Assembly (NCBI GenBank): GCA_017452265.1
Contig: JAFTMS010000014.1
Coordinates: forward strand, 1-62,829
Length of the DNA stretch: 62,829 nt
Source of the DNA: Bacteroidales bacterium
GTDB taxonomy: Bacteria; Bacteroidota; Bacteroidia; Bacteroidales; UBA932
Reading direction: 5' to 3'
Part shown: positions 55,627 through 62,829 of the stretch, in pieces
Layout: each line of letters begins with the position of its first letter
How positions within the stretch are numbered: the first letter of the stretch is position 1
Program-made: the position numbers and the translations under genes
Notes under the pieces: model-generated
Seen by the model: only the letters and a program-made list of their open reading frames with translations
Told to the model about the DNA's origin: nothing
Database searches by the model: none

Positions 55627-55666
55627 GAGTGTGGTACAAAAATCAGCCGATTCCTGTACCACACTC
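55627..55666. repeat. 40-nt hairpin repeat, copy B
   Basis: GAGTGTGGTACA..AATC and GATT..TGTACCACACTC arms around AGCC, the same family and orientation as copy A 461 bp earlier; the common unit extends leftward through CAGAARTATGACRAG. Confidence 0.8.
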
Positions 55667-55717: not shown

Positions 55718-55748
55718 TTGCTTTTTCAAAATGAATTTGATAATTTTG
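55718..55748 (+). promoter_or_regulatory. Predicted promoter of the leu operon
   Basis: TTG (55718-55720), exactly 20 nt, then TAATTTTG (55741-55748), a full consensus match. It puts the transcription start near 55755, so the leader ORF at 55793 and the hairpin before leuA lie in the 5' UTR. Confidence 0.8.
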
Positions 55749-55792: not shown

Positions 55793-55849
55793 ATGAACAG
55801 GAGAACCCTATCGCTGCTATCACTATTGCTATGGAATCTTCCTCGGTGA
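55793..55849 (+). CDS. leuL: leu operon leader peptide (Leu-rich, 18 residues)
   Basis: Eighteen-codon ORF beginning MNRRT and containing LSLLSLLLWNL: seven Leu codons within eleven positions, four of them CTA, a codon seldom seen in the flanking genes. It lies about 40 nt after the promoter, and a terminator hairpin ending next to leuA begins 73 nt after its stop. This is the layout of classical ribosome-mediated attenuation: stalling at Leu codons when charged tRNA-Leu is scarce would prevent the terminator. I did not find a single unambiguous antiterminator; TCCGG at about 55855 could pair with CCGGA in the terminator arm. Analogous to, but not similar in sequence to, E. coli LeuL. Confidence 0.82.
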   Translation: MNRRTLSLLSLLLWNLPR

Positions 55850-55921: not shown

Positions 55922-55950
55922 GCCTCCGGATGCTTTCCGGGGGCTTTTTT
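55922..55950 (+). terminator. Attenuator terminator immediately before leuA
   Basis: GCCTCCGGA pairs with TCCGGGGGC (nine pairs, one G-T wobble) around a 5-nt loop and is followed by T6. It ends 10 nt before the leuA ATG, so it must be bypassed for leuA expression. Confidence 0.88.
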
Positions 55951-55960
55951 ATTTAGACAA

Positions 55961-57457
55961 ATGGACCAGAAACTCTATGTATTTGACACGACTCTCAGGG
56001 ACGGCGAACAGGTTCCCGGATGTCAACTTAACACGATTGAGAAGATCGAACTGGCAAAGCTGCTCGAAACCATGAAGGTGGATGTCATCGAGTGCGGATT
56101 CCCGATATCCAGCCCCGGTGACTTCAAGTCCATCGTTGAAATCTCTAAAGTGGTGACCGAATCGAGGCTGTGCGCCCTCTCGCGTGCTGTCGAAAAGGAT
56201 ATAGACATGGCTGCCGACGCCCTTCATTTCGCACGTCTGAAGCGTATCCACACCGGAATAGGTACGTCGGACTACCATATCAGATATAAATTCAACTCCA
56301 ACCGCGACGAAATCCTCGAACGTGCGGTGGCGGCCGTGAAGTATGCAAGGAAGTATGTCGATGACGTGGAGTTTTATGCAGAGGACGCAGGCAGGACCGA
56401 TAACGAATACCTCGCGAGGGTGGTGGAGGCCGTAATCAAGGCCGGTGCGACCGTGGTGAACATCCCGGACACGACGGGATACTGCCTTCCGCACGAGTAC
56501 GGAGCGAAGATAAAATACCTCATCGACAACGTCCCGAACATCGACAAGGCCATAATCTCGACGCATTGCCACAACGACCTCGGAATGGCCACGGCAAACA
56601 CCCTCGCCGGAGTGATCAACGGTGCAAGGCAGGTGGAGGTGACCATGAACGGTGTGGGAGAAAGGGCCGGAAACACGGCGATGGAGGAAGTCGTGATGGC
56701 GGTGAAGAGCCGCAAGGACATCCCTGTATATACCGACATCGTCACCCGGCATTTCCACAAGGCCTCACATGCCGTTTCGACGCTTATGAGGATGCCTGTG
56801 CAGCCGAACAAGGCCATCGTGGGCAGAAACGCCTTCGCGCATTCGTCGGGAATACATCAGGACGGAGTGCTCAAGAACCGTGAGAGCTATGAAATCATCG
56901 ATCCTGTGGATGTGGGAGTGAACGATTCCACTATCGAACTCACTGCAAGAAGCGGCAGGGCTGCCCTGAACCACCATCTGCAGCGTCTCGGAATCAATCT
57001 GACCAAGGAACTCCTGGACAGCGCGTATGACAAGTTCCTCAAGCTTGCAGACTGCAAGAAGGACATCAACGATTCAGACCTGTACATGCTGGCCGGAGTG
57101 ACGCAGGACAAGCACGCCCAGAAGCTCAGGCTCAAATATCTGCAGGTGGTATGCGGAAAGAACGCCATACCGATGGCGACGGTGAAGCTCATCATCGACG
57201 GCGAGGAATGCACCGCCACATCGAGCGGAAACGGCCCTGTGGATGCTGCGTTCAAGGCAGTCAGAAGCCTGATACACAGGAAGGTGAACCTCGAGGAATA
57301 TCTCGTCCAGGCGATAACCAAGGGCACGGACGACGTGGGCAAGGTGCACATACAGATCGAGAATCAGGGAAATATATACTACGGATTTTCGGCAAACACC
57401 GACATCGTGACGGCATCGGTCGAGGCCTACGTGAACGCAATTTCCAAAATTATATGA
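55961..57457 (+). CDS. leuA: 2-isopropylmalate synthase
   Basis: Committed step of leucine synthesis: condenses acetyl-CoA with 2-oxoisovalerate. 498 residues with the catalytic barrel motifs [50 protein letters not shown] and [15 protein letters not shown], followed by [12 protein letters not shown] and a C-terminal regulatory domain (~390-498) that binds leucine for feedback inhibition in this family. Homocitrate synthase or citramalate synthase are less likely given the leuC-leuD-leuB genes that follow. Controlled by the leader upstream. Confidence 0.94.
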
Positions 57458-60486: not shown

Positions 60487-60494
60487 TCCGGTGC

Positions 60495-60583
60495 CACTCA
60501 TCCGGAAAAACCGCCATTTTCCCGGAGCACCCAGGCTTTTTGCACCACTCGTCCGGAAAATCCCGCATTTCCCCGGACGACCC
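60495..60583 (+). repeat. 51-bp palindromic repeat, third locus (about 1.8 units)
   Basis: Units begin at 60495 (CACTCATCC) and 60546 (CACTCGTCC), 51 bp apart, with CCGGAAAA inverted repeats and the GAGCACCCAGGCTTTTTGCA spacer. Same orientation relative to the upstream stop codon as at the other two loci. Confidence 0.85.
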
Positions 60584-60598
60584 AAATATGAAGACGAC

Positions 60599-61249
60599 AT
60601 GAAGACTGAAAGAATATTGAAAGACCCGGATCTGGGGGAGGTGACGTTCAGAAAGAGCGCCAGGAGCTGCCGCATGAGCATACGGGTGCATCCGGTGAAG
60701 GGAGTGAGCGTCATTATGCCCGTCATTGTGCCCTATGCGGTGGCAGAGGCGTTCTACAATGCGCGGAGGCAGTGGGTGATCGAGACGGTGGCGAAGCAGA
60801 AGGAGCGTTACCGCGATGTGCCGAAGGCTTCTGCGGAGCAGATCGAGGCGATGCGCCGTCAGGCGAAAGCCGAGCTGCCGGGACGTCTGGCAGAACTCGC
60901 TGCAAGGTATGCCTTCCTATATAATAAGGTGACGATAAAGCATAATGCCACCAACTGGGGAAGCTGTTCTGCGAAAGGAAACATCAATCTGAATCTGAAC
61001 ATAGTGCGTCTTCCACGTCCGCTGCAGGACTATATCCTTCTGCATGAGCTCTGCCATCTTCGTCACCACGATCACGGCCAGGGTTTCCATCTGCTTCTGG
61101 AACATGTCTGCACGGACAATCTCATAAGACTGATGGACGAGGGAGACCAGACAGCTGCAATGCTGGCACGAAAGGTTGCGGCGAGCCGGGCGAAGTATCC
61201 GATGGACCATATAATGACGGCCGAGATCAAAAAATACGGGATTGTGTGA
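60599..61249 (+). CDS. YgjP-like (DUF45) zinc-metallopeptidase-type protein
   Basis: 216-residue M48/WLM-like protein of the YgjP (DUF45) family, function poorly known. The zinc motif is HELCHLRHHDHG with a downstream acidic residue; TNWGSCSAKGNINLNLNIVRLP is the family signature, and the N-terminal part has RSCRMSIRVHPVKGVSVIMP. I start at 60599 because longer in-frame starts translate the repeat array. It follows leuB with only repeats between and is probably an incidental operon member. Confidence 0.87.
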   Translation: MKTERILKDPDLGEVTFRKSARSCRMSIRVHPVKGVSVIMPVIVPYAVAEAFYNARRQWVIETVAKQKERYRDVPKASAEQIEAMRRQAKAELPGRLAELAARYAFLYNKVTIKHNATNWGSCSAKGNINLNLNIVRLPRPLQDYILLHELCHLRHHDHGQGFHLLLEHVCTDNLIRLMDEGDQTAAMLARKVAASRAKYPMDHIMTAEIKKYGIV

Positions 61250-61278
61250 ACAACTTAAGGAAAAATTCATTAAGTTTG
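61246..61278 (+). promoter_or_regulatory. Possible promoter of ilvD
   Basis: An exact TAAGTTTG (61271-61278) has a weak TGTG 22 nt upstream overlapping the end of the YgjP gene. It would start transcription about 50 nt before the leader ORF. Confidence 0.5.
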
Positions 61279-61336
61279 CACTCACGCTTCCCCGAAATGC
61301 GCGTCGGATAAAGTCGAACGAACTCAGAATAGCACG

Positions 61337-61411
61337 ATGTTCTTAGCTTTACATACGAATGTCATAACCATGATTCTTACGGTGATTGTTTCCCTAATTA
61401 TCGGGAAATAG
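61337..61411 (+). CDS. ilvL: ilv leader peptide (Ile/Val/Leu-rich, 24 residues)
   Basis: Twenty-four-codon ORF that starts MFLALHTN and continues VITMILTVIVSLIIGK. Twelve residues are Leu, Val or Ile, packed as in enterobacterial IlvL, matching the three end products of the pathway that IlvD serves. Its last codons form the left arm of a hairpin, and a terminator hairpin with T6 follows just before ilvD. A ribosome stalled at the Ile/Val codons would cover that left arm and favour an alternative fold. The peptide has no known role apart from being translated. Confidence 0.85.
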   Translation: MFLALHTNVITMILTVIVSLIIGK

Positions 61412-61419
61412 TCCGTAAG
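61376..61419 (+). promoter_or_regulatory. ilv leader pause/1:2 hairpin and candidate antiterminator strand
   Basis: CTTACGG (61376-61382) pairs with CCGTAAG (61413-61419) and, inside, TTTCCC (61389-61394) with GGGAAA (61403-61408); the left arms are leader-peptide codons. The sequence just after it, CCATTGGTG (from about 61421), can pair with CACC..TGG inside the terminator loop, or CATTG with CAATG, as a competing fold. Confidence 0.65.
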
Positions 61420-61441
61420 GCCATTGGTGCATTAATATATT

Positions 61442-61485
61442 GTCGCTTGCAACACCTCTGGTCAATGATAGCAGGCGACTTTTTT
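61442..61485 (+). terminator. Attenuator terminator immediately before ilvD
   Basis: GTCGCTTGC (61442-61450) pairs with GCAGGCGAC (61471-61479), nine pairs with one T-G wobble, 20-nt loop, then T6. The ilvD ATG follows 4 nt after the T-run, so the T-run/ATTTA spacing matches that of the leu attenuator. Confidence 0.85.
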
Positions 61486-61489
61486 ATTT

Positions 61490-62829
61490 ATGAAACAACT
61501 CAGAAGCAGTATCTGTACAACGGGCCCCAAGATGGCCGGCGCAAGAGGACTCTGGAGAGCCAACGGAATGAAGGACAGCCATTTCGGCCGTCCCGTGATT
61601 GCGATAGTGAATTCCTTCACGCAGTTTGTCCCCGGCCATGTGCATCTTCATGAGATAGGTCAGGAGATAAAGGCAAGGATAGAGGAATTGGGATGCTTTG
61701 CGGCAGAATTCAATACGGTGGCTGTGGATGACGGCATCGCCATGGGCCATGACGGCATGCTTTATTCGCTTCCGTCAAGGGATATGATAGCTGACAGCGT
61801 GGAGTATATGTGCAACGCCCACTGTGCAGATGCCATGATATGCATCTCGAACTGTGACAAGGTCACTCCGGGAATGCTTATGGCGGCCATGAGACTGAAT
61901 ATCCCTGCCGTTTTTGTGTCGGGTGGCCCTATGGAGGCAGGCCGTGTAGGTGAAAGGGATTACGACCTTGTGGATCTGATGGTCCGTGGAGCGGATCCGT
62001 CTGCAACTCCAGAGGAACTGGATGCCCTCGAAAGAGGAGGCTGTCCGGGATGCGGCTGCTGCTCCGGCATGTTCACTGCAAATTCCATGAACTGTCTCAG
62101 CGAGGCCCTCGGTATGGCCCCTGCCGGCAACGGCACGATGCTCGCGACACACAAGGAACGCCGCAACCTCTTTCTCAAGGGAGCCGAACTGATTGTAAGG
62201 AACGCTCTTGCATATTATATGGACGATGACGAAAGCGTGCTTCCTCTCTCGATCGCCACAAAGCAGGCCTTCCTGAATGCGATGTCGCTCGATATCGCCA
62301 TGGGCGGTTCCACCAACACGGTGCTCCATCTTCTGGCTGTCGCCCATGAGGCCGGCGTGGACTTCACGATGAAGGATATAGACGAACTTTCAAGAAGGAT
62401 TCCTGTGCTTTGCAAGGTGTCGCCGAACAGCCGTTACCATATACAGGACGTGGCCCGTGCAGGCGGCGTGATGGGAATACTTGCGGAACTTGACCGTGGA
62501 GGATTCCTCGACACGTCGGTACGCAGGGTGGACTATCCGTCTCTCGCTGCGGCCATTTCCGCAGAAGACATAATCACGGCAGGCCGTAACAAGACCACAC
62601 AGAAATATCTCGCGGCTCCGGGCGGACGATACAACCGTCTGTTGGGCTCCAATTACGTATATCACAATTCATTCGATACCGACCGTGCGGAAGGCTGCAT
62701 CCGTGATCTGGAGCATGCATATTTCCGTGACGGAGGACTTGCAGTGCTGCAGGGCAATCTCGCTGCGGACGGCTGCATAGTGAAGACTGCGGGTGTGGAT
62801 GAAGGCATATGGAAGTTCCGCGGCCCGGC
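61490..62829 (+). CDS. ilvD: Dihydroxy-acid dehydratase (3'-truncated by window end)
   Basis: Fe-S dehydratase of isoleucine/valine synthesis, 446 codons visible of roughly 600. Motifs: [35 protein letters not shown], the cluster Cys in [42 protein letters not shown] (usual form GxCPTCGSCSGM) and [14 protein letters not shown]. The frame is open to the last base and continues outside. It starts right after the attenuator hairpin, so its expression depends on read-through. Confidence 0.95.

What the first reader, a model, noticed from the sequence alone, without database searches (positions are those of the whole stretch)
61271..61492. Second attenuator: Ile/Val/Leu-rich leader peptide and T6 hairpin before ilvD
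Seen: a 24-codon ORF with VITMILTVIVSLII (12 of 24 residues are Ile, Val or Leu), a nested hairpin whose left arm is inside those codons (CTTACGG/CCGTAAG), and a terminator (GTCGCTTGC/GCAGGCGAC + T6) abutting ilvD. The codon content matches exactly the pathway's end products. With the leu leader, two independent leaders 5.5 kb apart follow the same plan, including T6-ATTTA next to the start codon.
Basis: partly seen in the sequence, partly recalled or inferred. Interest (0 to 1): 0.85.

Follow-up and report, generated by a model that had tools for sequence, protein, structure and literature searches.

The report
Bacteroidales ilvD leader-peptide transcription attenuator
A short message ahead of the branched-chain amino acid genes encodes a tiny peptide full of isoleucine, valine and leucine, followed by a stop signal; the ribosome's progress through it very probably decides whether the genes are read, a known kind of switch that is common in related bacteria.

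Summary
At 61337-61411 a 24-codon ORF (12 Ile/Val/Leu) lies between a promoter-like motif (61271) and a 9-bp, 20-nt-loop terminator plus T6 (61442-61485), 10 nt before ilvD. Leader and terminator in order occurred in 0 of 20,000 shuffles. An overlapping contig shows that it heads ilvD-ilvB-ilvC.

Of 123 ilvD upstreams read from the order search, 95 carry an Ile/Leu/Val leader; 8 of 123 shuffled ones and 16 of 537 control genes do. An alignment made without structure recovers two mutually exclusive helices with covariation: an antiterminator arm at the leader stop codon, and the terminator. Rare Leu codons are concentrated in both leaders of the window.

The window itself is an outlier: its antiterminator (61419-61430 with 61453-61463, in the terminator loop) is not significant alone (36 of 200 shuffles).

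Verdict: a ribosome-mediated BCAA transcription attenuator, a new member of a known kind. Such attenuation was already noted for a flavobacterium (PMC9723704); my eight searches listed no description of this ilvD family. No expression data were available.

The parts
61271..61278 (+). promoter -7-like motif TAAGTTTG (TAnnTTTG, the Bacteroidota consensus as recalled), 66 nt before the leader ATG
   Evidence: exact match; in relatives TAnnTTTG lies within 110 nt of the leader in 105 of 118 against 13 in shuffles. The transcription start is inferred, not mapped
61337..61411 (+). leader ORF MFLALHTNVITMILTVIVSLIIGK (alternative in-frame ATG at 61370)
   Evidence: joint shuffle test; leaders of this type in relatives; rare Leu codons CTA+TTA 3 of 4 against 41 of 1444
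61361..61402 (+). control codons (VITMILTVIVSLII)
   Evidence: 10 of 14 residues are Ile/Val/Leu
61376..61382 (+). arm 1 of the possible protector hairpin (CTTACGG), inside the control codons
   Evidence: MFE folds; 20 of 200 shuffles pair as well
61413..61419 (+). arm 2 of the possible protector hairpin (CCGTAAG), just after the leader stop
   Evidence: MFE folds
61419..61430 (+). proposed antiterminator strand (GGCCATTGGTGC)
   Evidence: forms in the MFE fold of the transcript before the terminator right arm is made; not significant alone (36 of 200 shuffles); a strand near the leader stop is significant at 5% in 102 of 120 loci, the window being among the 18 that fail
61453..61463 (+). partner of the antiterminator strand (CACCTCTGGTC), in the terminator loop
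61442..61479 (+). terminator hairpin: GTCGCTTGC 61442-61450 / loop 61451-61470 / GCAGGCGAC 61471-61479
   Evidence: -12.9 kcal/mol; 8 of 20,000 shuffles; relatives' terminators covary
61480..61485 (+). U-tract T6
61490..62829 (+). ilvD, dihydroxy-acid dehydratase (cut by the window end; continues as ilvD-ilvB-small ORF-ilvC on the overlapping contig C44)
   Evidence: NCBIfam NF009103 724 bits, cut-off 710
55741..55748 (+). promoter -7-like motif TAATTTTG of the sister leuA leader
55793..55849 (+). sister leu leader MNRRTLSLLSLLLWNLPR (7 Leu of 18, 4 of them CTA)
   Evidence: Leu run 0 of 100 shuffles, though 16 of 100 when Ile, Leu and Val are all counted; CTA 4 of 7 against 15 of 1444 in window genes, P = 7e-7
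55922..55950 (+). leuA leader terminator GCCTCCGGATGCTTTCCGGGGGC + T6
55961..57457 (+). leuA, 2-isopropylmalate synthase
   Evidence: NCBIfam NF002086 715.6 bits, cut-off 532

Best explanation
This is a ribosome-mediated transcription attenuator for the ilvD-ilvB-ilvC operon. Transcription starts just after the TAAGTTTG motif and a ribosome begins the 24-codon leader behind the polymerase. If charged tRNA-Ile, -Val or -Leu is scarce, the ribosome stalls in 61361-61402 and leaves the strand 61419-61430 free to pair with 61453-61463 before the terminator's right arm is made, so the polymerase reads on into ilvD. If the amino acids are plentiful, the ribosome reaches the stop codon at 61409-61411 and covers that strand, so the terminator 61442-61479 + T6 forms and the transcript ends at about 61485. 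Without translation the finished RNA also favours the terminator, with the 1:2 hairpin formed. SHOWN by sequence and comparison: leader, codon bias, terminator, promoter motif, operon, and two mutually exclusive covarying helices in relatives. INFERRED: ribosome stalling, actual termination, response to amino acids, any protective role of the 1:2 hairpin, and the exact antiterminator of the window itself.
For: 0 of 20,000 shuffles for leader plus terminator in order. 95 of 123 order loci with Ile/Leu/Val leaders against 8 of 123 shuffled; eleven other residue sets gave at most 39 of 123, the two highest (FIL 39, ILK 38) sharing I and L with the test set; 16 of 537 control genes. Antiterminator duplex significant at 5% in 102 of 120 loci and at 1% in 79 of 120. 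The structure-naive alignment of 119 loci recovers the terminator (8 of 12 columns above every one of 500 shuffles; column 48:65 paired 0.93 against at most 0.66, 39 double changes) and the antiterminator (5 of 6 columns above every shuffle; 9:54 paired 0.73 against at most 0.63, 26 double changes). Left-arm positions pair with both partners and switch together (core position 3: A/T/A 47, T/A/T 16, G/C/G 15 of 116). Rare Leu codons in both window leaders. Promoter motif in 105 of 118. Same-genus genome G061 (78% ilvD identity) has MALNGNSSIIISLLVVAVVVISIIVP, a GCGCTTGCC...GGCAAGCGT terminator and, judged by N-termini, the same leuACDB-leader-ilvD gene order.
Against: The window's own antiterminator is weak: 36 of 200 shuffles pair as well, it touches the terminator loop and not its left arm, and at equilibrium the full RNA prefers the terminator even with the strand free (-14.8 against -11.9), so the switch would have to be kinetic. 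The 1:2 hairpin does not exclude the antiterminator in the fold before the right arm is made and is not significant in the window (20 of 200). The 20-nt terminator loop is unusual. Of the 123 order loci, 28 have no such leader; of 223 upstreams of all origins, 84 lack one and 19 have a leader without a detected terminator. The locus with the highest ilvD identity in the named collection (L031, 72%) lacks an Ile/Leu/Val leader. Shuffle tests do not correct for relatedness. No expression data.
Confidence: 0.9

Rival explanations
1. The hairpin is only the ordinary 3' terminator of the upstream metallopeptidase-like gene (60491-61249), and ilvD is transcribed by read-through or from a promoter further down; the short ORF is chance.
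For: The upstream gene is co-directional and ends 88 nt before the leader.
Against: In G061 the leader follows a leuB-like ORF and that gene is absent; leader plus terminator recurs in 120 of 223 upstreams and leader, strand and terminator covary. The promoter-like motif lies between the upstream gene and the leader.
Confidence: 0.04
2. The ORF encodes a functional small hydrophobic (membrane) peptide rather than a codon counter.
For: The peptide is strongly hydrophobic and the type is widespread.
Against: In the 12-residue windows of 120 leaders Phe is 0.6%, Met 0.5%, Ala 1.5% and Trp 0.2% (the leaders had been selected on I/L/V content); the set FLM reached 8 of 12 in only 6 of 123 loci against 1 shuffled; order and number of residues vary freely; rare Leu codons are concentrated in the window's leaders.
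Confidence: 0.03
3. The hairpin acts mainly on translation: it ends 10 nt from the ilvD start and, in RNAs that escape termination, hides the start region, so regulation is by ribosome access rather than termination.
For: The stem ends 10 nt before ATG in the window, tied for the shortest of 120 loci (median 29, range 10-138).
Against: A run of 6 U directly after the stem is the mark of an intrinsic terminator; in half of the 120 loci the hairpin ends 29 nt or more before the start. It may add to termination in the window.
Confidence: 0.08
4. A metabolite- or tRNA-sensing RNA (riboswitch or T-box) controls the terminator.
For: A structured 5' region with a terminator.
Against: No Rfam family in the whole window at gathering score, and only two matches far below gathering in the region; the parts shared by relatives are the coding run, the strand at its stop codon and the terminator.
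Confidence: 0.01

Closest known systems
Listeria monocytogenes Rli60, attenuator of the ilvDBHC-leuABCD-ilvA operon (PMC5864092, passages seen)
   Same: Leader before ilvD as first gene; short BCAA-rich peptide (13 aa); overlapping antiterminator and terminator; terminator more stable than antiterminator (-17.1 against -10.3 there; -14.8 against -11.9 here), so the choice is kinetic.
   Different: Tested by mutation there, only predicted here; other phylum; it sits under CodY, which no call here examined; no common sequence was tested.
Corynebacterium ilvBNC attenuator / ilvB-II motif (PMC11857589 passages; PMC10272879 abstract and section 14)
   Same: BCAA-rich upstream ORF, terminator, antiterminator and anti-antiterminator hairpins.
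   Different: Actinobacterium, different first gene; there a mutational analysis exists. Here the antiterminator strand of the relatives overlaps the leader stop codon and the 1:2 hairpin is only partly supported (49 of 120 at 5%).
Leader-peptide attenuation noted in Bacteroidota: Flavobacterium psychrophilum (PMC9723704, one passage) and sORFs in long 5' UTRs of Bacteroides thetaiotaomicron (PMC7366714, passages)
   Same: Same phylum; 'strong clues' for leader-peptide attenuation upstream of amino-acid biosynthesis operons in the first; sORFs 'reminiscent of leader peptides' in the second.
   Different: The passages seen name no ilvD family, sequences or covariation; supplementary files could not be looked at.
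E. coli ilv and leu leaders (recalled, no call)
   Same: Regulatory codons for the pathway's products; 1:2, 2:3 and 3:4 hairpins; rare CUA Leu codons in the leu leader.
   Different: No sequence relation was tested directly; no Rfam match.

Membership tests
Ribosome-mediated (leader-peptide) transcription attenuator of BCAA operons | Short ORF rich in codons for the operon's product amino acids | tested here: met
   12 of 24 codons Ile/Val/Leu; 180 of 20,000 shuffles; 95 of 123 order loci
Ribosome-mediated (leader-peptide) transcription attenuator of BCAA operons | Intrinsic terminator between leader ORF and first structural gene | tested here: met
   9-bp stem + T6; 8 of 20,000 shuffles; termination itself not measured
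Ribosome-mediated (leader-peptide) transcription attenuator of BCAA operons | Antiterminator mutually exclusive with the terminator, controlled by ribosome position | tested here: inconclusive
   Relatives: 102 of 120 loci significant at 5% and covarying. Window alone: 36 of 200 shuffles
Ribosome-mediated (leader-peptide) transcription attenuator of BCAA operons | Protector (1:2) hairpin between control codons and antiterminator strand | tested here: inconclusive
   CTTACGG/CCGTAAG in the MFE fold, but it coexists with the antiterminator before the right arm is made; 20 of 200 shuffles for the window; 49 of 120 loci at 5%
Ribosome-mediated (leader-peptide) transcription attenuator of BCAA operons | Downstream operon makes the sensed amino acids | tested here: met
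   ilvD, ilvB, ilvC
Ribosome-mediated (leader-peptide) transcription attenuator of BCAA operons | Termination relieved by shortage of Ile/Val/Leu | not testable with these tools
   needs expression data
Rfam riboswitch, T-box or leader families | Match at gathering score | tested here: not met
   0 matches in the window; only CRISPR-DR66 (15.9 of 45 bits) and folP (14.5 of 99 bits) in the region

The most novel reading that the evidence does not exclude
Bacteroidales share one undescribed attenuator RNA family before ilvD (and in several genomes before leuA) in which the antiterminator strand overlaps the leader stop codon, so that a ribosome finishing the peptide blocks it directly and a protector hairpin is not essential. 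In the clade of the window (window, G061, in part G260) the strand has shifted towards pairing with an enlarged terminator loop while control codons and terminator stem are kept.
Probability: 0.45. Interest if true: 0.5.

Novelty: new member of a known kind. Interest (0 to 1): 0.4.

Why it matters
Leader-peptide attenuation is best known in Proteobacteria, Actinobacteria and Firmicutes. A covarying example before ilvD across an order of Bacteroidota, which largely lack Shine-Dalgarno initiation (recalled), implies that a ribosome follows the polymerase closely at these leaders. That would make transcription-translation coupling in this phylum testable with a natural reporter. It also gives a rule for annotating BCAA operons and their short ORFs in many gut and environmental genomes.

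Tried and rejected
Rfam at gathering score and permissive on the region: nothing at threshold. The generic terminator scan does not list this terminator because of its loop limit. Attenuators of other pathways in the same genome: hisG and the trpE N-terminal domain were not found in the 84%-complete genome; the homoserine dehydrogenase gene was found, but I saw no Thr/Ile-rich ORF in the 400 nt before it. A phylum sample of 296 genomes gave 4 with this ilvD type at E <= 1e-150, one of them the window's own genome and two of the same order, so the distribution outside the order was not pursued. Contig C44 repeats the window's end at 99.93% over 11,861 bases; judged an assembly overlap and not counted as a second attenuator. 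Minus-strand loci were read in the wrong orientation; corrected. Covariance-model tools and the count of structure pairs were not used; covariation was counted in scripts. In one search the A partner was chosen by best pairing, so its counts lean towards pairing; one search was aligned without structure.

Rows left out: of 229 upstreams, 5 shorter than 200 nt and L041 (the same contig as L008) were not scored, which leaves 223; of its 120 loci L187, whose terminator call looked spurious, was dropped. Near-identical rows were kept. The 123 order loci are 26 given plus 97 fetched from its capped listing in rank order, with matches already read and some lower-ranked ones left out; the leader-positive set of 120 mixes three searches. 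In one search, 4 of 12 terminator columns and 1 of 6 antiterminator columns do not exceed the shuffles.

Full report
WHAT IS THERE. The 24-codon ORF, the nested hairpin and the terminator are at the stated coordinates. The ORF MFLALHTNVITMILTVIVSLIIGK runs from 61337 to 61411. The terminator stem is 61442-61450 / 61471-61479 with a 20-nt loop and T6 at 61480-61485; ilvD starts at 61490. The fold of 61337-61500 has z = -3.78, with 0 of 200 shuffles as stable; the longer 61253-61492 has z = -2.27, 5 of 200. In 20,000 dinucleotide shuffles of the 240-nt upstream, 180 had a leader of this richness, 8 a terminator of this quality and 0 both in order, and the pair is the only one on both strands of the window at these thresholds. 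A looser leader-only test gave 4 of 100. A TAnnTTTG promoter-like motif (consensus recalled) begins at 61271.

CONTEXT. NCBIfam matches ilvD, leuA, leuC, leuD and leuB; the gene between leuB and ilvD had no match at 1e-10. Contig C44 overlaps the last 11,861 bases of the window at 99.93% and continues with ilvB, a small ORF of about 80 codons and ilvC. The leader thus heads an ilvD-ilvB-ilvC operon. In the same-genus genome G061 the ORFs, named by resemblance of their N-termini only, run leuA-leuC-leuD-leuB-[leader]-ilvD-ilvB-(ilvN position)-ilvC.

RELATIVES. Search of 393 genomes of the order gave 165 with this ilvD type at E <= 1e-150. From it 123 upstreams were read in this count: 26 given as loci and 97 fetched. 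Of these 123, 95 have a leader with at least 8 Ile/Leu/Val in 12 residues and 28 do not. In one shuffle of each upstream 8 of 123 did; eleven other residue sets gave at most 39 of 123, the two highest (FIL 39, ILK 38) sharing I and L with the test set; among 537 other genes of loci L031-L110 (several phyla), 16 did. Over all sources 223 upstreams were scored, non-Bacteroidota included: 84 without leader, 19 with leader but no terminator, 120 with both. In 105 of 118 of these with enough sequence a TAnnTTTG lies within 110 nt before the leader (13 expected from shuffles), median 31 nt from the leader ATG; in the window the distance to ATG 61337 is 66 nt (whose row for the window counts 99 from the ATG at 61370).

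THE SWITCH. In the 120 loci the best-pairing strand starts at a median of 5 nt before the end of the stop codon, ends 8 nt after it, and pairs with the terminator's left arm and loop (median 9 pairs in the arm, 1 in the loop): 102 of 120 at 5% and 79 of 120 at 1% of shuffles. The duplex is at least as stable as the terminator in 57 of 120. A structure-naive MAFFT alignment of 119 of them (L187 dropped) recovers both helices. Terminator: 8 of 12 columns above all 500 shuffles, the best 48:65 paired in 0.93 (shuffles at most 0.66) with 39 double changes. Antiterminator: 5 of 6 columns above all shuffles: 9:54 0.73 (at most 0.63, 26 double changes), 10:53 0.75 (0.74), 11:52 0.88 (0.85, 15 double changes), 12:51 0.97 (0.96), 14:49 0.91 (0.88); 13:50 is not (0.93, 0.95). 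Left-arm positions switch together with both partners, and 107 of 116 anchored loci have at least 6 of 8 core positions paired both ways (A partner chosen by pairing). Relatedness is not corrected for. A 1:2 pairing between control codons and this strand is in moderate excess: 49 of 120 at 5%, 19 of 120 at 1%.

THE WINDOW AS AN OUTLIER. Its strand lies at +6 to +19 after the stop and pairs with the terminator loop (9 pairs, none in the left arm); 36 of 200 shuffles do as well. Folding the RNA before the right arm exists gives this antiterminator, -11.9 kcal/mol with everything up to 61415 masked; masking to 61424 (ribosome at the stop) leaves only a -3.2 structure; with the right arm present the terminator stem has probability 0.99-1.00 in every state tried. 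So antitermination here would be kinetic, as in Listeria Rli60, where the authors give -10.3 for the antiterminator and -17.1 for the terminator (PMC5864092, passages). In the unmasked RNA before the right arm is made, the 1:2 hairpin and the antiterminator stand side by side, which speaks against a simple protector role. G061 keeps the stem (GCGCTTGCC...GGCAAGCGT) and the last Ile codons but has other letters in strand and loop, again able to pair (-15.0 before the right arm), with 23 of 200 shuffles. Two weak cases are suggestive only; G260 (L139) pairs arm and loop, 2 of 200.

CODON CHOICE. In 34 ORFs of the window CTA is 15 of 1444 Leu codons; in the leu leader it is 4 of 7 (P = 7e-7), and CTA+TTA are 3 of 4 in the ilvD leader against 41 of 1444 (P = 1e-4). 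Rare codons at the control site fit a codon-counting role better than a conserved peptide.

THE SISTER LEADER. MNRRTLSLLSLLLWNLPR at 55793-55849 before leuA has its own terminator 55922-55950 and promoter-like motif. Its Leu content was reached in 0 of 100 shuffles, its Ile+Leu+Val content in 16 of 100. Its fold switches from an antiterminator-type structure to the terminator when 13 nt after the stop are masked. In several same-genus relatives the sequence just before leuA resembles the end of ilvC and has no leader, while other relatives have a Leu/Ile-rich leader.

LITERATURE. Leader-peptide attenuation upstream of amino-acid operons was noted for Flavobacterium psychrophilum (PMC9723704, one passage), and sORFs in long 5' UTRs for B. 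thetaiotaomicron (PMC7366714, passages). Naville and Gautheret (PMC2965389, passages) wrote in 2010 that to their knowledge no leader-peptide system was shown outside Proteobacteria and Actinobacteria before their Firmicutes case. Lopatovskaya et al. 2010 could not be read (seen only as a citation), and may well treat Bacteroidetes. The eight searches, in an open-access library and judged by their listings, showed no description of a Bacteroidales ilvD attenuator family.

VERDICT. A genuine BCAA attenuator of a known kind, with good comparative support at the level of the order and a divergent antiterminator in this genome. Interest is moderate.

Noticed in passing
   Followed up: no
window 60491-61249 (+): A gene with an HELCHLRHHDHG zinc-metallopeptidase-like motif (recalled) sits between leuB and the ilvD leader in the window; in G061 no ORF over 150 aa lies there; no NCBIfam match at 1e-10.
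   Followed up: partly
G000 C9:50969-62829 and C44:1-11861: Two contigs of the assembly overlap over 11,861 bases with 8 mismatches, so genes here appear twice in whole-genome searches.
   Followed up: yes
L266 (G000 C7), upstream of the aspartokinase/homoserine dehydrogenase gene: A direct repeat of about 50 bases (ending in GATAATATTCATAAT) occurs twice within 400 nt before the gene, where no amino-acid leader was seen.
   Followed up: no
window 55627-55666 (-): A hairpin with 18 pairs (GAGTGTGGTACAG...GTACCACACTC) lies about 130 nt before the leu leader and looks like a terminator of one or both directions.
   Followed up: no
L031 (uncultured Rikenellaceae MAG), 300 nt before ilvD: The named locus with the highest ilvD identity (72%) has no Ile/Leu/Val leader but a short Phe/Leu-rich ORF (MAQSAFLFLNLWFV...) and a weak terminator-like hairpin.
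   Followed up: no
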